Below are positions 3,834 to 21,841 of a DNA stretch of 21,899 nucleotides, piece after piece. Source of the stretch: a virus. The position numbers were made by a program, and so were the translations under genes. Location of the stretch: positions 1-21,899 of the IMG/VR virus record IMGVR_UViG_3300025309_000189; one strand, written 5' to 3'. The notes beneath the pieces were generated by a model, which saw only the letters and a program-made list of their open reading frames with translations, was not told where the DNA came from and made no database searches. Position 1 is the stretch's first letter, and every line of letters begins with the position of its first letter.

Positions 3834-4054
3834 GGTATGGCAGAGGTATGGAACCCTGCAACCCTTGCTGGCATTGTTCCTTCCATACCTTCCATACCTT
3901 CCATAGGTAAATTGTGTTGCGTGCGCGCGCGTATATGCGCGGGTGTGCGCCCGCTCGCCTGCGGGTGGGTAGGTATGGAAGGTATGGAAGGTATGGAACA
4001 TCCAGTAACGGCGTGGCTTGCAGGGTTCCATACCTGTGCCATACCTTCCATACC
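3834..4054. repeat. Large dyad of eleven GGTATGGAA-type 9-mers between vapE and the tail gene
   Basis: Forward copies of GGTATGGAA start at 3834 (7/9), 3845, 3972, 3981 and 3990. Reverse copies (TTCCATACC) start at 3881, 3890, 3899 (7/9), 4026, 4037 (7/9) and 4046. They form nested inverted repeats: 3834-3861 pairs with 4018-4045 (27 of 28 positions) and 3881-3907 pairs with 3972-3998 (25 of 27). Both arms share the same centre at 3939.5. The 64-nt loop holds an alternating GC run around 3921-3948. It lies directly after the vapE stop codon. Tandem short iterons beside a replication gene suggest a replication origin or initiator binding site; a giant RNA hairpin or terminator is the alternative. 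Function is inference. Confidence 0.85.
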
Positions 4055-9223: not shown

Positions 9224-9262
9224 TAGATCGGCGGCACTGCCGCGAACTCAGGAGGGCGACAA

Positions 9263-10090
9263 ATGGCAATGGTCAGTTGTAGCGAATGTGGCAAAGAGAT
9301 CAGCGACAAGGCCGCTGCATGCCCGAACTGTGGCGCACCAGCCGAAAAAATTCGGCTTATCCCATGCCCAAACTGCCAAAAAGAAGTCTTGCCAGGCGCA
9401 ACGATCTGCCCACACTGCAAGCGCGTGCTTAAAGCAAGCACAAACCGCCGCTGCCTGTCGTGCGGCTACATTGGCCAAATGAAGACATGGTTGCGCAACT
9501 ACAGCATGCCGCAGTTCATCGCCCTCGTACTGGCGTTCTTTTACATTATCCCGGCCATTATTTTTATTGCATGGGGATGGGGTAAACACAAATGCCCGCA
9601 GTGCGGGGCGCTGGGGAAAAACATTCCTTCGGCCCCGCCGCGCGGCATGATTGACGACATCGGCGACATCGAAGACGACATCAGGCGCGAACGCAAGGCG
9701 CACGCTGAAGCGTTAAGCACGGCTCTGGCATCTTGCCAAGAAGAGCACCAAGCGGCAGTCAATGCGCTGACTTGGCTGGCTGCTGCCGACGGCACCGTGA
9801 GCAAGCAGGAGCTGCGGGGTATCTTTCGCTTCTGCGAAGATCAGGGCACGCCCATCGACAAGGGCGCCTATAAGGCGATCGACAGCCTGAATGCAGGCAT
9901 GTCTATGCAGGTGAAAGCCACGGAAGCCGATGCGCACCGCTCCATCTCTTCACTGACTGGCAGGGAAGCTCCCTATAGGCTGGCTTTTTACGGCGCAGCC
10001 AATAAGCTCTGCGGATCGCAGAAGCAGCTTAGCCAAGCCAAACAACGATTCCTCAAGCAGGCCGAAGCCATCGTCGTCCAGCAATCATGA
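9263..10090 (+). CDS. Zinc-ribbon membrane protein with C-terminal TerB-like domain
   Basis: 275 aa. The N-terminus carries repeated CxxC zinc ribbons: CSECG/CPNCG (about 6-23), CPNC/CPHC (about 35-52) and CLSCG (near 63). A hydrophobic segment (FIALVLAFFYIIPAIIFIAW) follows, then another Cys pair (CPQCG). From about residue 155 a helical region (ALTWLAAADGTVSKQELRGI and what follows) resembles TerB-like domains linked to membrane stress and phage-defence contexts. An AGGAGG ribosome-binding site precedes ATG 9263. Its stop overlaps the lipoprotein start by 4 nt (ATGA). The gene is not needed for phage growth in known relatives and looks like a moron. Domain order is seen; TerB is inferred from pattern. 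Confidence 0.78.
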   Translation: MAMVSCSECGKEISDKAAACPNCGAPAEKIRLIPCPNCQKEVLPGATICPHCKRVLKASTNRRCLSCGYIGQMKTWLRNYSMPQFIALVLAFFYIIPAIIFIAWGWGKHKCPQCGALGKNIPSAPPRGMIDDIGDIEDDIRRERKAHAEALSTALASCQEEHQAAVNALTWLAAADGTVSKQELRGIFRFCEDQGTPIDKGAYKAIDSLNAGMSMQVKATEADAHRSISSLTGREAPYRLAFYGAANKLCGSQKQLSQAKQRFLKQAEAIVVQQS

Positions 10091-10374
10091 CAAAAATCAA
10101 AATCACCTTACTCGCCGCCCTGCTCTTAATTTCCGGCTGCGCCGGAACCGCATTCAAGTGGAGCGATGCCCGCAAGATCACGCCTGGCATGACCACCACC
10201 GAGGCGACCCAGTTGATCGGCACTCCCAACAACGTCACGTCGCGCGACGGCATCCTGATCTACGTCTGGGTCAATGTGAACATGCTGACCGCAGAGACCC
10301 GGACGCTCAGGGTCGATTTCAGGGACAACAAGGCCATCTCGGCCCCGCCGATACCGGACTCTTTCAAGGATTGA
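10087..10374 (+). CDS. BamE/SmpA-like lipoprotein
   Basis: 95 aa. It has a lipoprotein signal with a LISGC lipobox (Cys 18) and then ARKITPGMTTTEATQLIGTP, the helix and turn typical of SmpA/OmlA (BamE)-like folds, followed by strands (GILIYVWVNV). Family members are anchored to the outer membrane; true BamE helps beta-barrel assembly, whereas prophage versions have unknown roles. It overlaps the zinc-ribbon gene by ATGA and so is co-translated with it. Together with the secreted 8750 product it suggests envelope modification during lysogeny. Confidence 0.8.
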   Translation: MTKIKITLLAALLLISGCAGTAFKWSDARKITPGMTTTEATQLIGTPNNVTSRDGILIYVWVNVNMLTAETRTLRVDFRDNKAISAPPIPDSFKD

Positions 10375-12655: not shown

Positions 12656-12867
12656 GCCAGCAACTGTACGCAAAGATCAAGCGCAGCAGCAAGTATTTCA
12701 GCCAGAACAAGGTCGCCCAAGAGAACGGTTACGGCCTGCCGTTCGCAGTGAGAGTGGAGGTGATCAGCGACGCCTACTGCGTGAGCGGCGGGCCAGGCGG
12801 ACGCTACCGGCTCAGCGACGTCAACCTGTTTATTGTGGAAGACGGCAAAGAATTGAGGATTTCATGA
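12652..12867 (+). CDS. Small hypothetical phage protein
   Basis: 71 aa, MSQQLYAKIKRSSKYFSQNK, then a beta-rich half (FAVRVEVISDAYCVSGGPGG, VNLFIVEDGKELRIS). It overlaps both neighbours by ATGA-type junctions. No family recognised. Confidence 0.68.
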   Translation: MSQQLYAKIKRSSKYFSQNKVAQENGYGLPFAVRVEVISDAYCVSGGPGGRYRLSDVNLFIVEDGKELRIS

Positions 12868-13538
12868 CCAAGAGCCGAGGAATCCGCGCACCGCGCATGG
12901 TCTGGACGGAGCAGCAGGTCGAGGCCATCCGTCGGCGCTATCCGCACGAGCGCACCGACGCCATCGCCCGCGATCTCGGCCTACCGGTGGCAAGAGTTTA
13001 TTCAAAAGCCGCATGGATGGGCTTGGCGAAGACGCCGGAATACATGGACAGCCCGGAAGCCTGCCGCCTGCGCCGGGACAATCCGCAGGGTGTTCTGCAC
13101 CGCTTTCCGAAAGGACACGTCCCGGCCAACAAGGGCGTGAAAGGCATCAGCTATCCTGGTATGGAGGCCACGCAGTTCAAGAAAGGCGCGAAGCCGCACA
13201 CCTGGAAGCCGATCGGCACCGAGCGCTACAGCAAGGAAGGCTATCTACAACGCAAGGTCACTGACACCGGCTATCCGCCGCGCGACTGGGTAGGTGTGCA
13301 TATCCTGCTGTGGCGCGAACATCACGGGGAGATTCCGTCTGCCCACATTATCAAATTCAAGGATGGCAACAAGCAGAACATCGCCATCGAGAATCTGGAA
13401 TGCATCAGCCAGGCCGACAACATGCGGCGCAACAGTTTTCACAACTATCCCAAAGAAGTCGCGCAACTCATCCAGCTGCGCGGCGCCGTCCAACGTCAAA
13501 TCAACAAAAGGAGCAAGCAAGATGAGCAGTCAACCTGA
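12864..13538 (+). CDS. HNH endonuclease-like protein with N-terminal HTH
   Basis: 224 aa. Residues about 14-58 form an HTH (WTEQQVEAIRRRYPHERTDA, IARDLGLPVARVYSKAAWMG). The C-terminal half holds an HNH_3-type fold: VHILLWREHHGEIPSAHIIK, then FKDGNKQNIAIENLECIS. The central His and Asn positions (HIIKFKDGNKQN) agree with phage HNH proteins, although the usual GH at the core is AH here. Such proteins nick or cleave DNA; some are homing enzymes and some aid packaging. It overlaps the next gene by 17 nt. Confidence 0.82.
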   Translation: MTKSRGIRAPRMVWTEQQVEAIRRRYPHERTDAIARDLGLPVARVYSKAAWMGLAKTPEYMDSPEACRLRRDNPQGVLHRFPKGHVPANKGVKGISYPGMEATQFKKGAKPHTWKPIGTERYSKEGYLQRKVTDTGYPPRDWVGVHILLWREHHGEIPSAHIIKFKDGNKQNIAIENLECISQADNMRRNSFHNYPKEVAQLIQLRGAVQRQINKRSKQDEQST

Positions 13539-13875
13539 ACAGCAGCCCGAACAACAGAACGACATCCGCGCGCTGCGCACAACCCTGTTCGATACCCTGA
13601 AAGGTCTGAAAGATAAGACACTGGAAGTCGATCGCGCCAAGACCATCGCCGATACGGCGCAGGTAATCATCAATAGCGTAAAAGCCGAGATCGACTTTGC
13701 CAAAGCAACCGGGCTTCAGCCCAGCTCGGAATTTATTCCAACTGCGCAACTTTCAAAACCGGAGCCGAGACCGGCCATGCAGAACCTGCGTGACAAGGGC
13801 ATCCTGGCGGAAGACCCGGTGCGCCCCGGTATCAGCTATCCGGCACCCGGCGTGATACGCCATACCTTGCGCTAA
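13522..13875 (+). CDS. Hypothetical phage protein, coiled/helical
   Basis: 117 aa from ATG 13522, with AAAGGAG upstream. After a Gln/Glu-rich start comes a helical block (LRTTLFDTLKGLKDKTLEVD and VINSVKAEIDFAKATG) seen in a widespread family of small phage proteins of unknown function located in early regions. The C-terminus is Pro-rich (PVRPGISYPAPGVIRHTLR). It is the last gene before the lectin-like trio. It does not look like the four-helix Avd accessory protein of DGRs. Confidence 0.65.
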   Translation: MSSQPEQQPEQQNDIRALRTTLFDTLKGLKDKTLEVDRAKTIADTAQVIINSVKAEIDFAKATGLQPSSEFIPTAQLSKPEPRPAMQNLRDKGILAEDPVRPGISYPAPGVIRHTLR

Positions 13876-13907: not shown

Positions 13908-14285
13908 ATGAACGCACCAACCAAACCAACCATCCTCGCCTTCCCAGAACTCAAGGACGGAGAGAAATACGCCTTCGGCATCACCCTTCCGGATGGCAAA
14001 ACCATACACACCATTTTATTACCCGTAGATGAAGTCGTGCCAAGCTGGAACGCCGGGATGGAATTGGCAAAGAACATTGGGGGCGATCTTCCGGATCGCG
14101 CTGAGCAAGCACTTTTCCACAAATACATGCCGGAGGAATTCCAGAAGAAGGCCTACTGGAGCAATACGCAGCACGCTGGCTACTCATGCAACGCCTGGTA
14201 TCAGCGTTTCCTCGACGGCGACCAGAGCCTCGACAACAAGAGCTGTGCCCTCCGCGTGCGCCCCGTCCGCAGAGTAACAATTTAA
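13908..14285 (+). CDS. Putative DGR variable protein 1 (C-type-lectin/DUF1566-like)
   Basis: 125 aa, with an AAGGAG ribosome-binding site before ATG 13908. The N-terminal part (LPDGKTIHTILLPVDE, SWNAGMELAKNIGGDLPDRA) resembles the scaffold of short phage DUF1566/C-type-lectin folds. The C-terminal 40 residues, from KAYWSNTQHAG to LRVRPVRR, match the two following genes except at scattered surface-loop positions. Every variable codon is NNC or NNT. The fold binds ligands in known DGR targets; the ligand here is unknown. No signal peptide is present, so the protein is either cytoplasmic or carried on the virion. Closest to protein 3; protein 2 has a different scaffold. Confidence 0.8.
   Translation: MNAPTKPTILAFPELKDGEKYAFGITLPDGKTIHTILLPVDEVVPSWNAGMELAKNIGGDLPDRAEQALFHKYMPEEFQKKAYWSNTQHAGYSCNAWYQRFLDGDQSLDNKSCALRVRPVRRVTI
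14151..14272 (+). repeat. Variable repeat 1 (DGR-type VR)
   Basis: Aligns without gaps to 14789-14910 and 15280-15401. The variable core is 14181-14237 (57 nt). The 35 nt after it (14238-14272, containing CGCGTGCGCCCCGTCCGCAG) are almost invariant and could act as the initiation site for mutagenic homing. Confidence 0.8.
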
Positions 14286-14317
14286 CCATTCAGTAATTTA
14301 TCAATTCGGAGGTAACT

Positions 14318-14923
14318 ATGAACGCAATCACCACTACTACACTTCCCGCGATCGGCACTCCCATGCCCGGCGGATTCTTCGCCGGCGCGATCATGTTCAA
14401 CGGCCAGCGAATCGCAATTATCCAGGCATCCAAACTACACGAACTGAGCGGCGCTTGGCATGATAATGAACCCGACGTGCCCGGCGCGAAGTCGTACAAC
14501 GACGGGCTGGCCAACACACAGGCCATGGCCGAGGCTAGTAGCGAACTTGCCAGGCAAGTGATGGACCTCACCATCGATGGCCTGAGCGACTTTTACATCC
14601 CATCCCAGGACGAAGCCGAACTCTGCTATCGCGCATTCAAGCCGACGACAGACAAAAACTGGTGCTATGCACGCTCAGGCATCAACCTGAGCGCCGTGCC
14701 GCCAACATATCCCTACACGCCGGAATTTCCCATACAGACCACGCTGGATGCCTTCAAGCAAGGCGGTGATGAAGCGTTCGAGCCGGAAGCCTACTGGACC
14801 AGCACGCAGCACGCTGGCAGCTCGAACTACGCCTGGTATCAGTATTTCGGCTACGGAGACCAGTACGGCTACTACAAGAGCTGTGAGCTCCGCGTGCGCC
14901 CCGTCCGCAGGCAGCCAATTTAA
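14318..14923 (+). CDS. Putative DGR variable protein 2 (DUF1566-like, longer scaffold)
   Basis: 201 aa; a CGGAGG ribosome-binding site precedes ATG 14318. The N-terminal ~70 residues (GGFFAGAIMFNGQRIAIIQA) and the middle (LSDFYIPSQDEAELCYRAF) follow DUF1566 domains. The segment EAYWTSTQHAG to LRVRPVRR is the shared variable module. Tyr, Gly, Ser and Asn occupy the variable positions, the residue set reachable from AAC/AAT. The unrelated N-terminal scaffold joined to the same C-terminal module shows that the module, not the whole gene, has been duplicated or homogenised. No signal peptide is seen. Confidence 0.8.
   Translation: MNAITTTTLPAIGTPMPGGFFAGAIMFNGQRIAIIQASKLHELSGAWHDNEPDVPGAKSYNDGLANTQAMAEASSELARQVMDLTIDGLSDFYIPSQDEAELCYRAFKPTTDKNWCYARSGINLSAVPPTYPYTPEFPIQTTLDAFKQGGDEAFEPEAYWTSTQHAGSSNYAWYQYFGYGDQYGYYKSCELRVRPVRRQPI
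14789..14910 (+). repeat. Variable repeat 2 (DGR-type VR)
   Basis: The variable core is 14819-14875 (57 nt). Downstream, 14876-14910 includes GAGCTGTGAGCTC, a small perfect hairpin (5-bp stem, GTG loop), also present in VR3 but altered in VR1. Confidence 0.8.
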
Positions 14924-14955
14924 CTATTCAGTCATTCATCCATTAGGAGACACCG

Positions 14956-15432
14956 ATGTCCGCAACTACAACGCTTGAATTCGACGGCGCCAAGATCACC
15001 GTCGATACGTCTGCACTGTTCCGCGCCTGGTTCGAAAGGCACCTCGGTAAGCCGGGTACACCATCCTGCGCGATACCAGCCGCAAGGCCGGGAGAACGCT
15101 ACCTTGGCTCGATCACAGAGCCGAGCGGGCGGATGCGCCACACCTTCTTGCTGCCGGATGATAAGAAAAAGAACTGGAACGACGGCATGGAATGGGCAAG
15201 AAGCGTCGGTGGCGACCTACCAGATCGCATCGAGCAGGCCATGCTCTTCGCATACATGCCAGATGAGTTCCAAAAGGAAGCCTACTGGAGCAATACGCAG
15301 CACGCTGGCGACTCAGGCTACGCCTGGTATCAGAGTTTCGACTACGGAAACCAGTACGGCCACGGCAAGAGCTGTGAGCTCCGCGTGCGCCCCGTCCGCA
15401 GAGAATTCAGTGATTCAGTCATTGGTAACTAG
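14956..15432 (+). CDS. Putative DGR variable protein 3 (C-type-lectin/DUF1566-like)
   Basis: 158 aa from ATG 14956, with AGGAG upstream. The scaffold (RYLGSITEPSGRMRHTFLLP, NDGMEWARSVGGDLPDRIEQ) is homologous to protein 1. The C-terminal module EAYWSNTQHAG to LRVRPVRR differs from protein 1 at the NNY codons and little else. It continues 10 residues past the point where proteins 1 and 2 stop, because the conserved ATTCAGT 3' flank is translated here. The stop is 2 nt before the GTG of the HNH gene. Together the three genes look like one array serving a single diversification machinery. Confidence 0.8.
   Translation: MSATTTLEFDGAKITVDTSALFRAWFERHLGKPGTPSCAIPAARPGERYLGSITEPSGRMRHTFLLPDDKKKNWNDGMEWARSVGGDLPDRIEQAMLFAYMPDEFQKEAYWSNTQHAGDSGYAWYQSFDYGNQYGHGKSCELRVRPVRREFSDSVIGN
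15280..15401 (+). repeat. Variable repeat 3 (DGR-type VR)
   Basis: The variable core is 15310-15366. The flanks (15280-15309 and 15367-15401) match VR1 and VR2 almost exactly. Confidence 0.8.
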
Positions 15433-15434
15433 CC

Positions 15435-15905
15435 GTGAACACTAAGAAGCCAATTCTTCAACGATTAATGCAACGGACTATCAGACAAGGCGAATGCCTT
15501 ATCTGGACTGGTGCGCGCAATAATTGCGGATATGGTCTGATTAGATTTAATGGCAAGTCATGCACTGTGCATCGCGTAAGTTTCACTGTGCACAAAGGAG
15601 AAATACCGGCTGGTATGGTCATCATGCACGCTTGCGACAATCGACTTTGCGTCAATCCTGAGCATCTATCGATTGGCACCCACAGTGACAACACTAGAGA
15701 CATGGATAGCAAGGCACGCTGCAAGCGAACAAAAGGCAGTCAACATCACAAAGCCACTTTGACTGAAGAGGCCGCCGCAGAAATTCGACGGCGCTACAAA
15801 CCATATTGCAGAGCAAACAGCACATATGCGCTGGCGCGTGAGTTTTCCGTCAGCCAAAGCACAATCAAAGCCGTACTCCAGGGAACTACGTGGAGGTCAG
15901 CTTGA
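15435..15905 (+). CDS. HNH homing-type endonuclease
   Basis: 156 aa from GTG 15435, 2 nt after the stop of variable protein 3; no convincing Shine-Dalgarno is seen, so translation is probably coupled. A complete HNH_3 core is visible: VHRVSFTVHKGEIPAGMVIM, then HACDNRLCVNPEHLSIGTHS, with paired Cys and the HxxxNPxHL ending typical of phage HNH enzymes, followed by a C-terminal HTH (TYALAREFSVSQSTIKAVLQ) for DNA recognition. Base composition is clearly less GC-rich than its neighbours, a sign of separate acquisition. It may be a free-standing homing endonuclease that mobilises this locus. Confidence 0.85.
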   Translation: MNTKKPILQRLMQRTIRQGECLIWTGARNNCGYGLIRFNGKSCTVHRVSFTVHKGEIPAGMVIMHACDNRLCVNPEHLSIGTHSDNTRDMDSKARCKRTKGSQHHKATLTEEAAAEIRRRYKPYCRANSTYALAREFSVSQSTIKAVLQGTTWRSA

Positions 15906-15931
15906 CATCCGCCAACCTCCGGGCATACCAT
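15902..15931 (+). promoter_or_regulatory. Candidate promoter for the Rha leader and rightward genes
   Basis: A perfect TTGACA (15902-15907) overlaps the HNH stop codon; TACCAT lies 18 nt on (15926-15931). It would start a ~230-nt leader before rha. Confidence 0.5.
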
Positions 15932-15959
15932 GCGCGCACTGGCTCACATAGCCAGTCGA

Positions 15960-16160
15960 GTTTGAACGCTCGGGTTATAGGCGGACGAGCCGCCAGCAAC
16001 AGCGGCTTTTTTCACGTCCGTAAACACAGCAGCCCAATTGGGCGGCCTGTGTGGGGAGCCGCAAGGCTCGCCGGTTCCTATACCCGGTCGTTCAACCCGC
16101 ACTGTGCCGCCCTCCTTCATTTGAACGTGAGCGAGAGCGGTTTACCAAACCGTTATAGGA
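15960..16160 (+). ncRNA. Structured leader, ash/C4-antisense-RNA-like
   Basis: This 263-nt gap (15906-16168) holds no convincing separate gene but much structure. There are two mutually exclusive hairpins: GGCGG/CCGCC (15980-15994) and GCCGC/GCGGC followed by six T (15989-16012, terminator-like). A GCAA tetraloop hairpin sits at 16056-16069, and a CGGTTT/AAACCG hairpin (16138-16152) ends just before the AGGAG of rha. TTTGAACG and GTTATAGG each occur twice (15961 and 16120; 15974 and 16152). Phage ant/rha operons of the P1 and P22 type often carry an Icd/Ash reading frame and C4 antisense RNA here, and the frame into rha is open. Matching to C4 is from memory only. Confidence 0.45.
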
Positions 16161-16168
16161 GTCTCGCC

Positions 16169-16828
16169 ATGTCCAACATCACCACCCGCAAACCGTCCGT
16201 GAAACTCGTTCACGGCAAAGTCACCACCACCAGCCTCAAGATCGCCGACGTGTTCGGCAAACGCCACACGCATGTTCTGCGCGCCATCACCAACCTGCAA
16301 TGTTCGCCGGAATTCACTGAGCGCAATTTTGGGCTGAGTGAATACGCCGACAACACCGGGCGAAAACTGCCAATGTTCACCATCACCCGCGACGGCTTCG
16401 CCTTTCTCGCCAGCGGCTTCACCGGCAAGGAAGCCGCGCAGTGGAAAGAGAAGTACATCGAAGCCTTCAACGAACTGGAACGCCGCGCGCTGGAGAAGGC
16501 CGCCGCCAAGGCAGCACCCAAGGCCCTGCCTCCACCACCAAAGGCGCTGCCAGCAGGCAGCTACCACTATCCGCGCAACATGCTCAACCAGCCGTATTTC
16601 GTTTCGCCAAAGACCGGACAAACCCTGCTGAATGTCGCCGTGCTCACCAGCAGCACGTACGTATCGCCGCTGATGGCGCTGCTCAACCAGATGCGCAGCG
16701 AAGGCCACGAAGTCACCGCGCCGTTCGATGAAGCACTGGCGATGCGCAAAGCGCTCATCAAAGCAGCAAGGGCGCTGAATGATATCCAGACGCAGGCATT
16801 GGCGGCGCGGTTCGAAAGCGCGGAATAA
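16169..16828 (+). CDS. Rha-family phage regulatory protein
   Basis: 219 aa from ATG 16169 (ATAGGAG 5 nt upstream). Residues about 20-110 are the Rha domain: TTTSLKIADVFGKRHTHVLR, then ERNFGLSEYADNTGRKLPMF and TRDGFAFLASGFTGKEAAQW. After an Ala/Lys-rich helix and a Pro-rich linker comes a C-terminal region (AVLTSSTYVSPLMALLNQM) without a recognised domain. Rha/Ant-type proteins interfere with lysogeny or host functions when phages infect. The frame is open for 279 nt upstream with no stop, but the ribosome-binding site and domain start favour 16169. It is the first gene of the ParB and integrase segment. Confidence 0.85.
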   Translation: MSNITTRKPSVKLVHGKVTTTSLKIADVFGKRHTHVLRAITNLQCSPEFTERNFGLSEYADNTGRKLPMFTITRDGFAFLASGFTGKEAAQWKEKYIEAFNELERRALEKAAAKAAPKALPPPPKALPAGSYHYPRNMLNQPYFVSPKTGQTLLNVAVLTSSTYVSPLMALLNQMRSEGHEVTAPFDEALAMRKALIKAARALNDIQTQALAARFESAE

Positions 16829-16862: not shown

Positions 16863-18797
16863 ATGAACACAGCGACCGACCCATTCAATTCCACGACCCC
16901 CGACGAATACTTCCCCATTGCCATCGAGCGCCTCTTCCCATCGCCGACACAGCCGCGCAAACGTTTCGACGAAGCCAAGCTCAAAGACCTGGCCGAGTCG
17001 ATCAAGATGCAGGGCGTGCTGCAGCCGATCCTGGTGCGTAAGGCTGTGCCACCCACGGCCAAGCCGGTTACCTCATGGCCGTTCCCTTCCCCAAAGATCG
17101 AGAAACCAGCACAACCTGCAGATGAGATTCAACGCTTCGAGATCGTCGCCGGCGAACGGCGCTTCCGTGCCGCCAAACTCGCAGGCCTCACCGACATGCC
17201 CTGCTTCGTGCGTAACCTAACCGATCAGCAGGTGCTGCATGCCCAGGTGATCGAGAACCTGCAGCGGGATGACCTGCATCCGATCGAAGAGGCCGAGGGC
17301 TATGAACGGCTGATGAAGGAACAGGATGAAACCGGCAAACCCTATACCGCCGAGAGCATCGGCGTGGAAGTCGGCAAGAGCAAGGCCTATGTCTACGGGC
17401 GACTCAAGCTGCTGGCGCTGGTACCGGAAGCGCGCCAGGCGTTCTACGATGATGAACTGGACGCCTCCACCGCCCTGCTGATCGCCCGCATCCCGGTCGC
17501 CAAGCTGCAAACACAGGCCGTCAAGGATATCACCGCAAAAGCCGTGTACGGCACCAGCAGCCATCGCGAGGGCGATACCCTGATGTCCTACCGCACCGCG
17601 CGCGACCATATCCAGCGCGAATACATGACCGACCTCGCCCAAGCACCGTTTCAAATCAAGGATGCCAAGCTGAGCGAAAAGGCGGGTGCCTGTACCGATT
17701 GCACCAAACGCACCGGCAACCAACCCGAACTCTTTGATGATGTGAAGAGCAAAGACGTCTGCACGGACACCGTCTGCTTCGCCATGAAGAAGACGGCACA
17801 CATTCTCGCCATCCAAAAAGAGGCTGAGGCAAAAGGTTGCGCCGTCATCACCGGCAAGGCTGCGAAGAAGCTCATGCCGAACCCGCATTGGGGTTCGCAC
17901 CCATCCCCATCACCCGACAGCGGCTACGCCAGGCTGGATAGTATCTGCCCGCATGATCCTGAACACCGCACCTGGGAAGAGGTGCTCGGCAAGAAAGCCT
18001 TCGCGCCTGCGAAAGATACCGGCAAGCCTGCCGTGCAGAAGACCCTGATCGAGGACACTCACAGAAATGAGCTGATCCCAACGATCTGGTTGAGCAGCGC
18101 CATCAAGGCGCTGCGCGATATGGGCATAGAGGTCAAACCGGCGCACACTTCCAGCAGCGCCCCATCAGTCAAAGCGCAGGCAGACCAAAAGGACAAGATC
18201 GAACAGGCGAACACCTTCCGCCGCCGGCTGTTCGATACCCTGCACCAGCAGATTGAAGTGGATATCAGCGGGCCCAAGGCATTCGTCGCACCGGGACTGT
18301 ATCGCATCCTGGCCGAGCGCGCTTTCGAGCAAGCCGGTTATGACGAATGCGAGCACCTTGCCAAACTCTATATGCCCGGCACCACCATCGAAGATCAGGA
18401 CGATCTGATCGGCGCATTCCAGCAGCACATTCCGAACCTAACCACACAGCAACACTTCCTGATGATGGTTGACCTGATGATGCTCGACGAGATCAAGGCC
18501 GGGCACTACAACTATCAGAGCGCGCCGCAGATGATGACCAGCATCGCCCAGGAAGTCGGCATCGATGCAAAAGCGATCGAGAAAGAGGTAGACACGGAAG
18601 CCAAAGCCGCGAAAAAAGCGGCCTCATCTGCGGTCAAAAAAACGGAAGCGAAAAAGGTTCCTACCCCTACCCAAGCTGCGCAAGCGCCAGAGTCGAGCGC
18701 GCCCGAAAAAACCGAAGCTGTATGGCCGTTCCCTGAGCCAAATTACACGAAGGTGACGCCGGAAAAGACAAAAAGGAAAGCCGCTGCCGCGGCTTAG
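16863..18797 (+). CDS. ParB/RepB/Spo0J-family protein, large phage version
   Basis: 644 aa from ATG 16863, with AAAGGAG 7 nt upstream. The N-terminal ParB domain shows SPTQPRKRFDEAKLKDLAES, ILVRK and the CTP-binding box GERRFRAA (about 97-104), then VIENLQRDDLHPIEEAEGYE and an HTH (SIGVEVGKSKAYVYGRLKLL). A 30-residue insert (about 61-90) with WPFPSP splits the domain; a similar WPFPEP recurs near the C-terminus. Five Cys (CTDC near 291, then C, C and CF) may bind metal. The C-terminal ~100 residues are Lys/Ala rich. ParB proteins segregate plasmids or plasmid-prophages, but this one has no ParA beside it. It may act in phage replication or gene control. Confidence 0.85.
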   Translation: MNTATDPFNSTTPDEYFPIAIERLFPSPTQPRKRFDEAKLKDLAESIKMQGVLQPILVRKAVPPTAKPVTSWPFPSPKIEKPAQPADEIQRFEIVAGERRFRAAKLAGLTDMPCFVRNLTDQQVLHAQVIENLQRDDLHPIEEAEGYERLMKEQDETGKPYTAESIGVEVGKSKAYVYGRLKLLALVPEARQAFYDDELDASTALLIARIPVAKLQTQAVKDITAKAVYGTSSHREGDTLMSYRTARDHIQREYMTDLAQAPFQIKDAKLSEKAGACTDCTKRTGNQPELFDDVKSKDVCTDTVCFAMKKTAHILAIQKEAEAKGCAVITGKAAKKLMPNPHWGSHPSPSPDSGYARLDSICPHDPEHRTWEEVLGKKAFAPAKDTGKPAVQKTLIEDTHRNELIPTIWLSSAIKALRDMGIEVKPAHTSSSAPSVKAQADQKDKIEQANTFRRRLFDTLHQQIEVDISGPKAFVAPGLYRILAERAFEQAGYDECEHLAKLYMPGTTIEDQDDLIGAFQQHIPNLTTQQHFLMMVDLMMLDEIKAGHYNYQSAPQMMTSIAQEVGIDAKAIEKEVDTEAKAAKKAASSAVKKTEAKKVPTPTQAAQAPESSAPEKTEAVWPFPEPNYTKVTPEKTKRKAAAAA

Positions 18798-20496: not shown

Positions 20497-21630
20497 ATGG
20501 CCGGCACTATGGGACGAAAACCTTCCGTCAATCTCAATCTTCCACCCCGGATGCGCGCGCGTAAAAAGCCGGGCGGCACCTATTACTACTACGACGCCGG
20601 CGGTAAACCGCGCCGCGAGATCCCGCTGGGCAGCGACTACACCACCGCCGTGCGCAAGTGGGCCGCGCTCGAAGGCGATCAGCCCAGCGTGGGCAACCTG
20701 CTGACAGTGAAAGACCTCGCCGACCGCTATACCCGCGAGGTGATGCCGCTCAAGGCGGCGCGCACCATGGACGACAACCTGGTCGAGCTGGGCTGGCTGC
20801 TCAAGTTCTTCGGCAACCCGCCCGCCCCGATCGATTCCATCCAACCCATCCACGTCCGTCAGTACATGGACTGGCGCGTGAGCGAGTCCAGAAAGCGCGT
20901 CGCGGAAGAAAACGCCGTGCGCGCCAGCAAACACAAGCCCATCGTTCAGACCACCGGGAAAGAAGGCCAGGTGCGAGCCAACCGCGAAAAGGCGCTGTTC
21001 TCCCATATGTGGAACAAGGCGCGGGAATGGGGCATCACCGACAAACCCAACCCATGCGCCGGCATCAAGGGATTCACCGAGCCCGGCCGCAATATCTACA
21101 TCGAGGACAACGTGTTCGAGGCCGTCTGGAATGCCGCATGCGTCCCGCTACGCGACGCGCTGGATCTCGCCTACCTCACCGACCAGCGCCCGGAAGACGT
21201 GCGCGAAATGAGCGAGCTGGATATCAGGAACGGCGAGCTGCACGTTCTGCAAGGCAAGACCACCGAAAAGCTGCGCATCGAGATCACCGGCAAGCTGGAC
21301 GACCTGATCAAGAGCATCAAAGCCCGCAAGGAAGGCTACAAGATACACACCCTCGCCCTGCTCTGCACCGAAACCGGCCGCCCGCTCACCTACAACGGCT
21401 ATCGCGCCCGCTTCGACAAGGCACGGAAACAGGCCGCGAAGGAACACCCCGATCTAGCCGACGCTATCCGCGCCTTCCAGTTCCGCGATCTGCGCGCCAA
21501 GGCCGGCACCGACAAGGCCGACGCAGAAGGCATGGAATCCGCCCAGAAGCTGCTCGGACACAAGAACATCACCATGACCCAGCACTACGTCCGTAAACGC
21601 CTGGGCGAGCGCGTCAAGCCGACGAAATAA
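20497..21630 (+). CDS. int: Tyrosine-family phage integrase
   Basis: 377 aa, ATG 20497 after GGAGG. It catalyses integration and excision at the attachment site. The N-terminus (GTYYYYDAGGKPRREIPLGS) is a DUF3596-like arm-binding domain; the core-binding region spans about 65-175. Catalytic residues: Arg231 (TDQRPEDV), a Lys in the beta-hairpin (about 254-258), Arg330 in place of the usual His plus Arg333 (FRDLRAK), His355 (LLGHKNITM) and Tyr364 (QHYV). It reads toward tRNA-Leu, which lies about 120 nt past its stop, so the prophage right end is close by. Confidence 0.95.
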   Translation: MAGTMGRKPSVNLNLPPRMRARKKPGGTYYYYDAGGKPRREIPLGSDYTTAVRKWAALEGDQPSVGNLLTVKDLADRYTREVMPLKAARTMDDNLVELGWLLKFFGNPPAPIDSIQPIHVRQYMDWRVSESRKRVAEENAVRASKHKPIVQTTGKEGQVRANREKALFSHMWNKAREWGITDKPNPCAGIKGFTEPGRNIYIEDNVFEAVWNAACVPLRDALDLAYLTDQRPEDVREMSELDIRNGELHVLQGKTTEKLRIEITGKLDDLIKSIKARKEGYKIHTLALLCTETGRPLTYNGYRARFDKARKQAAKEHPDLADAIRAFQFRDLRAKAGTDKADAEGMESAQKLLGHKNITMTQHYVRKRLGERVKPTK

Positions 21631-21751: not shown

Positions 21752-21841
21752 TGGTGCCCGGGACCGGAATTGAACCGGTACGCCGCGTTAGCAGCGACGG
21801 ATTTTAAGTCCGTTGTGTCTACCAATTTCACCACCCGGGCA
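21752..21841 (-). tRNA. tRNA-Leu(UAA), phage attachment gene
   Basis: A complete class II tRNA on the minus strand. The 7-bp acceptor pairs 21835-21841 with 21755-21761, and CCA is encoded (21754-21752). The anticodon stem ACGGA/TCCGT surrounds the loop CTTAAAA, with anticodon UAA at 21806-21804. A long variable arm (CGCTGCTAACGCGGCG region) and T-loop TTCAATT are present. Its 3' end faces the integrase gene, so integration was probably within the 3' part, leaving the tRNA intact. Confidence 0.93.

What the first reader, a model, noticed from the sequence alone, without database searches (positions are those of the whole stretch)
13908..15432. Three tandem genes with diversity-generating-retroelement variability
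The C-terminal modules of the three genes align without gaps over 122 nt (14151-14272, 14789-14910, 15280-15401). Eleven codons differ in amino acid, and at all 11 the third base is fixed (C ten times, T once) while the first or second bases differ: for example TAC/AGC/GAC, TGC/AAC/GGC, CGT/TAT/AGT, CTC/GGC/GAC, AAC/TAC/GGC. This is what adenine mutagenesis of AAC/AAT template codons gives. Ordinary drift would put differences mainly at third positions. The proteins look like DUF1566/C-type-lectin folds, the known type of DGR target. An array of three targets in an early or accessory region, not a tail-fibre region, is unusual.
Basis: partly seen in the sequence, partly recalled or inferred. 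Interest (0 to 1): 0.9.

Follow-up and report, generated by a model that had tools for sequence, protein, structure and literature searches.

The report
DGR targets orphaned by HNH gene
Three neighbouring phage genes carry the scars of a known protein-diversifying machine (a diversity-generating retroelement), but the machine is gone and an HNH endonuclease gene stands in its place, a swap that recurs in at least 13 other phages.

Summary
The variability is real and is DGR-made. In the 107-nt core shared by the three genes, 21 of 22 polymorphic columns fall on adenines of the template repeats (TRs) of related phages (p about 1e-11); those relatives carry the same array followed by Avd, TR and reverse transcriptase (RT). 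Arrays of 2-3 targets are normal in this family.

The window itself holds no RT, Avd or TR. Where they belong, two bases after the last target gene, lies an HNH_3 endonuclease gene. The same HNH clade sits at a broken DGR in all 14 phages where I found it; the 69 next-ranked HNH homologues are never at one. Seven loci keep a 3' fragment of the RT gene; five of the seven fragments start within 9 codons of one another, at the motif NPTKTILQPVDRGVDFVG. The five fragments long enough for a tree join different intact RTs, so the swap happened at least five times. One pair (about 88% identical) shows the exact replacement.

Best reading: an orphaned, recently active DGR target array whose core was replaced by a DGR-associated HNH gene, probably a homing endonuclease with its site in the RT gene. 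Orphaning and replacement are shown; homing and cleavage are inferred.

The parts
13908..14285 (+). Target gene 1 (125 aa), Lcl_C/DUF1566 C-terminal domain; VR core 14166-14272
   Evidence: Pfam PF07603 E 3.7e-7, below gathering score; VR core homologous to TRs of relatives
14318..14923 (+). Target gene 2 (201 aa), Lcl_C/DUF1566; VR core 14804-14910
   Evidence: PF07603 E 3.8e-9, above gathering; 77% aa identity to L004 homologue, which has an intact DGR
14956..15432 (+). Target gene 3 (158 aa), Lcl_C/DUF1566; VR core 15295-15401
   Evidence: PF07603 E 2.2e-7, below gathering; AlphaFold2 pLDDT 82, best PDB match Legionella Lcl C-terminal domain 8q4e
15418..15432 (+). Left junction: identity with intact relatives (..GTGATTCAGTCATT) ends about 15423; the stop codon of target 3 comes from the replacing DNA; avd starts shortly after this point in relatives
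   Evidence: Junction comparison with L004, L005, L014, L088; inference from alignment
15435..15905 (+). HNH_3 endonuclease gene (156 aa, GTG start) in the place of avd-TR-RT
   Evidence: PF13392 E 1.2e-13; clade found at 13 further broken DGRs
15902..16170 (+). Leader-like segment (resembles the Ash/Icd-like leaders of phage accessory genes), 79% nt identical to L128 9293-9555, which lies upstream of the HNH gene there
   Evidence: the Ash/Icd name is from memory
16170..16828 (+). pRha regulatory gene; a homologue lies directly before the HNH gene in L269
   Evidence: PF09669 E 8.5e-30; L269 sequence
16863..18797 (+). ParB-family gene: the gene that directly follows RT in the intact relative L004 (right flank of the replaced segment)
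   Evidence: TIGR00180; gene order
20497..21630 (+). Integrase; tRNA-Leu at 21752-21840 (-) marks the probable right end of the prophage, so the early region is complete here
   Evidence: PF00589; ARAGORN

Best explanation
The three genes are targets of a DGR. Until recently an Avd/RT complex copied an A-rich TR, mutating its adenines, and wrote the copies into the 3' ends of all three genes, which kept their non-A bases identical. The core (avd, TR, RT) has since been replaced in this phage by a DNA segment carrying an HNH endonuclease gene, so the three lectin-fold proteins are intact but, as far as the record shows, no longer diversified. The same HNH clade has replaced the core repeatedly in other phages. 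The likely mechanism is homing: the HNH enzyme cuts intact DGR loci at the RT sequence coding NPTKTILQPVDRGVDFVG, and repair from the HNH-bearing copy puts the HNH gene against the RT 3' end (fixed right junction) while the left crossover falls anywhere upstream with homology (variable left junction), deleting avd, TR and most of RT. Shown: A-specific variation, missing core, recurrent replacement by one HNH clade, at least five independent events, clustered right junctions. Inferred: cleavage, the exact target site and homing. For the window itself no RT fragment survives, so its replacement is placed by analogy.
For: Relatives L004, L005, L006, L014 and L088 have the same array followed by bAvd (PF22296), TR and RT (PF00078). 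Own VR versus own TR: zero non-A mismatches in 9 of 9 VRs; window polymorphism 21/22 at template A, p about 1e-11; V2 and V3 identical at all 71 non-A columns while 60 nt upstream V1 and V3 are only 75% alike. No RVT_1 in the window record or in 13 other HNH records. Top HNH homologues all at broken DGRs, lower-ranked ones none. RT fragments join different intact RTs: L128+L057 support 0.99, L115+L048 0.93, L130+L077 0.81, L270+L044 0.79; Fitch count 5 changes. L128 versus L057: 1435 bp of core replaced by 1037 bp with HNH, flanks about 88% identical. Right edges at RT positions 275, 276, 279, 280, 283, 316, 338; chance of 5 of 7 within 9 codons 2.5e-5, or 0.0024 if limited to the last third of RT. 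Non-A columns still near-identical between VRs (1/71 variable), so the loss is recent.
Against: L089 lost its core at almost the same base as the window with no HNH gene, so HNH is not the only route. In L128 the replaced segment also carries a leader and another ORF, so HNH could be a passenger of a larger module. The window, L110, L124, L272, L274, L275 and L276 keep no RT fragment, so their junctions cannot be tested. Four of the five clustered junctions (L115, L127, L128, L130) belong to one HNH subclade, so they are not fully independent draws. No uninterrupted RT-N/HNH/RT-C intermediate was found. The late half of the window's phage is missing.
Confidence: 0.7

Rival explanations
1. Passenger model: the stretch downstream of the target array is a hot spot where phages exchange accessory modules (leader plus Rha, AntA-like, DUF3077-like and HNH genes). 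The DGR core is lost by ordinary recombination and HNH is only a frequent module, not the agent.
For: L089 lost the core without HNH; leader-like DNA shared by the window, L110, L124 and L128 in different orders; Rha next to HNH in the window and L269.
Against: One HNH clade is found at broken DGRs 14 of 14 times, while 69 lower-ranked homologues never are; right junctions cluster in one RT motif with the HNH stop codon abutting it.
Confidence: 0.25
2. The array is still diversified in trans by a DGR in the missing part of this phage, in the host or in a co-resident prophage; the local core is absent but not needed.
For: All 11 testable HNH-type arrays look fresh (156/334 A columns versus 18/727 other columns polymorphic); the closest TR (L014) differs from the window VRs at only 2-3 non-A sites.
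Against: No RT in any of 14 HNH-bearing records, three of them 42-49 kb; the intact relatives I read keep the core beside the array.
Confidence: 0.12
3. No DGR was ever involved: ordinary paralogue divergence under positive selection, with gene conversion keeping the rest alike.
For: The window itself lacks RT, TR and Avd.
Against: Variable columns match template adenines found in real TRs of four relatives; homogenised segment starts and ends where the TR does; no excess sharing of A-site alleles between VRs compared with intact arrays.
Confidence: 0.02
4. Assembly artefact: the core was dropped or a chimera formed at the VR/TR repeats.
For: VR and TR are direct repeats of about 107 nt.
Against: The junction lies about 20 bp beyond the repeat, after gene-specific DNA; the same structure occurs in many independent records, some of them IMG genome-derived by their record number (L110, L130, L274).
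Confidence: 0.02

Closest known systems
Multi-target DGRs with DUF1566/C-type-lectin targets (e.g. Stenotrophomonas sp. SKA14, six VRs, PMC6642488)
   Same: Tandem DUF1566 genes with A-specific variable 3' ends, shared non-A bases, Avd-TR-RT downstream in relatives
   Different: Window has no Avd, TR or RT; an HNH gene occupies their place
Free-standing phage HNH homing endonucleases (for example MobE in the nrdA gene of phage Aeh1; from memory, not tested)
   Same: Small HNH protein, recurrent insertion at one conserved coding motif in different lineages, junction fixed on one side
   Different: Here the insertion removes most of the invaded locus (avd, TR, RT N-terminus) rather than splitting a gene that stays functional; cleavage not shown
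Bordetella phage BPP-1 DGR (Mtd target)
   Same: A-directed variation at the C-terminus of a C-type-lectin-fold protein
   Different: Early/accessory region next to ParB and integrase genes, several targets, core missing

Membership tests
Diversity-generating retroelement (complete system) | DGR-type reverse transcriptase | tested here: not met
   No RVT_1 match in the window record; RT absent by tblastn with L004 RT. Present in relatives L004, L005, L006, L014, L088
Diversity-generating retroelement (complete system) | Template repeat with A at variable positions | tested here: not met
   Only the three VRs match in the 21.9-kb record; TR present in relatives
Diversity-generating retroelement (complete system) | Avd accessory protein | tested here: not met
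   No credible Avd match in the replaced region; HMM finds none in the window
DGR target (variable protein) | Adenine-specific variable repeat at the 3' end of the gene | tested here: met
   21/22 polymorphic columns at template A of relatives
DGR target (variable protein) | C-type-lectin fold | tested here: met
   Lcl_C matches; predicted fold matches 8q4e and many C-type lectins
DGR target (variable protein) | IMH-like GC-rich 3' end shared by VR and TR | tested here: inconclusive
   3' end CTCCGCGTGCGCCCCGTCCGCAG shared by the VRs and, but for one base, the L014 TR; IMH function not testable
HNH homing endonuclease | HNH catalytic domain | tested here: met
   HNH_3 PF13392 E 1.2e-13
HNH homing endonuclease | Same insertion site in separate lineages, absent from close relatives | tested here: met
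   L115, L127, L128, L130 and L269 junctions at RT positions 275-283; intact sisters. Not testable for the window itself, where no RT fragment remains
HNH homing endonuclease | Sequence-specific cleavage of the HNH-less allele and transfer by homing | not testable with these tools
   Needs biochemistry and mixed infections

The most novel reading that the evidence does not exclude
HNH-bearing arrays are not dead. A dedicated HNH clade displaces DGR cores and the orphan arrays go on being rewritten in trans by TR/RT of co-resident elements, which would explain why none of the 11 testable arrays looks decayed.
Probability: 0.1. Interest if true: 0.85.

Novelty: new variant of a known kind. Interest (0 to 1): 0.62.

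Why it matters
DGRs are usually treated as stable assets of phages. Here one small endonuclease lineage repeatedly removes the mutating core and leaves the targets. If homing is confirmed, DGRs have a dedicated genetic parasite, which would bear on why phages that need DGRs sometimes lack them. It would also give a natural experiment: frozen target arrays whose age since the last diversification can be read from their non-A columns. I found no paper linking HNH or homing endonucleases to DGR loss in the library searched; most subscription journals are not in it.

Tried and rejected
Search for a TR or RT in the window: none. Phage collection search with the VR: no match. Ordinary drift and gene conversion: rejected by the TR match and the lack of extra allele sharing. 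A first L089 polymorphism count was spoiled by a 3-nt insertion in V2 and was redone with gaps. Search of 399 genomes of the order of the Gallionellales MAG with the HNH alignment: 12 genomes with hits; the ten best neighbourhoods fetched showed no DGR. Target-gene search in the same order: 5 intact multi-target DGRs, no HNH replacement, several single DUF1566 genes. L266 'Avd' fragment: E 1e-5 beside an RHS gene, not pursued. PDB sequence search for the HNH protein: only one weak hit, E 0.018.

Full report
The observation. The window is a whole IMG/VR record of 21,899 bases. It reads as the terminase side plus early region of a prophage: gpA terminase and a primase-like gene on the left, minus strand; integrase and a tRNA-Leu on the right. 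The late genes are missing. Two of those four (12 and 23) are A-to-G and A-to-C type, one (5) lies outside the repeat, and one (33, in gene 1) is a true exception.

The DGR origin. A search for relatives of target 3 returned L004, L005 and L006. In each, the targets are followed by a gene matching bAvd, a repeat of the variable module, and a reverse transcriptase. The repeat in L014 is ACGCAGCACGCCGGCAACTCAAACAACGCCTGG..., with AAC or AAA at the variable sites. Each relative's own VRs differ from its own TR only at A: 0 non-A mismatches in 9 of 9 VRs. In the window 21 of 22 polymorphic columns are at template A, with p about 1e-11 for four different TRs and 20 of 22 for a fifth. Non-A columns are identical between genes 2 and 3 (71 of 71) and 70 of 71 between genes 1 and 3, although the 60 nt upstream are only 75% alike between genes 1 and 3. 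The homogenised block begins where the TR begins. That is concerted rewriting from one template. The three window VRs share two non-A bases not found in L014's TR, so their last template was the window lineage's own. Fold prediction of target 3 (pLDDT 82) matches the Legionella Lcl C-terminal domain and C-type lectins.

The missing core. The window has no RT, Avd or TR. Two bases after the stop of target 3 an HNH_3 gene begins (15435-15905). Identity to intact relatives ends about 15423, inside the last codons of target 3. After HNH come a leader-like segment, pRha and ParB; in the relative L004, ParB directly follows RT.

The pattern elsewhere. Searches with the HNH family give 14 distinct phages counting the window: L107, L110, L115, L124, L127, L128, L130, L269, L270, L272, L274, L275 and L276. 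All sit at a broken DGR; L269 has only the RT fragment, with no target gene detected. In the second scan every row down to L277 is such a locus and none of the 69 below is. In a sample chosen by target gene only, HNH adjoins 3 of 5 coreless arrays and 0 of 19 intact ones (p = 0.005). None of the 14 HNH-bearing records has an RVT_1 match anywhere. The HNH proteins group together with modest support (0.84) and two long-branch intruders.

Independence and junctions. RT fragments survive in seven loci; the five long enough for a tree join different intact RTs, so at least five separate replacements occurred. L128 and L057 are about 88% identical on both sides. L057 9391-10825 (avd from codon 5, TR, RT to about residue 277) is replaced in L128 by 9255-10291, holding a leader, a small ORF and HNH. 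Fragments begin at RT positions 275, 276, 279, 280, 283, 316 and 338. In L107, L127, L128 and L269 the HNH stop overlaps a start codon (ATGA or TTGA) in the RT frame. Left junctions vary: avd codon 5 (L128), avd codon 29 (L115), the end of the last target in the others.

Interpretation. A fixed right edge in one conserved motif, variable left edges and recurrence of one HNH clade are what homing would leave. Cleavage is not shown, and L089 shows the core can be lost without HNH. For the window, the right junction is gone, so its own event is placed by the family pattern. Non-A divergence between the window VRs (1 of 71 columns) against about 20% divergence from L014 means loss was recent, or rewriting continues in trans. 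The same holds for all 11 testable HNH-type arrays (156/334 A columns against 18/727 others).

Known and new. Multi-target DUF1566 DGRs are published (PMC6642488), and here 56 of 66 intact relatives have 2 or 3 targets. No paper in the searched library links HNH or homing endonucleases to DGR loss. Membership: the targets qualify as DGR variable proteins; the window is not a complete DGR because three defining parts were tested and not met.

Noticed in passing
L089 7470-9520: Same three-target array, core lost at nearly the same base as the window but with unrelated genes and no HNH; its integrase looks internally deleted.
   Followed up: partly
L107 11098-11100, L127 4908-4910, L269 10472-10474, L128 10284-10286: HNH stop codon overlaps an ATG or TTG in the RT reading frame (ATGA/TTGA), as if the RT fragment were translationally coupled.
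   Followed up: partly
L052 5813-7751: Intact DGR with a related HNH gene (40% identity) about 440 bp downstream of RT: a possible state before core loss.
   Followed up: no
L130 10882-13039: RT fragment is itself split by about 2.1 kb that looks like a DNA methyltransferase and a transposase gene.
   Followed up: no
window 12864-13872; L052 1928-2750; L124 12462-13327: A second HNH_3 gene and its small neighbour travel together near DGR target arrays, upstream or downstream.
   Followed up: no
window 3879-3998: Short 9-base tandem repeats (CCTTCCATA, AGGTATGGA) within a minus-strand ORF giving SIPSIP and MEGMEG runs.
   Followed up: no
L089 6830-6968: Second VR has one extra codon in the AAC-run region, perhaps template slippage.
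   Followed up: partly
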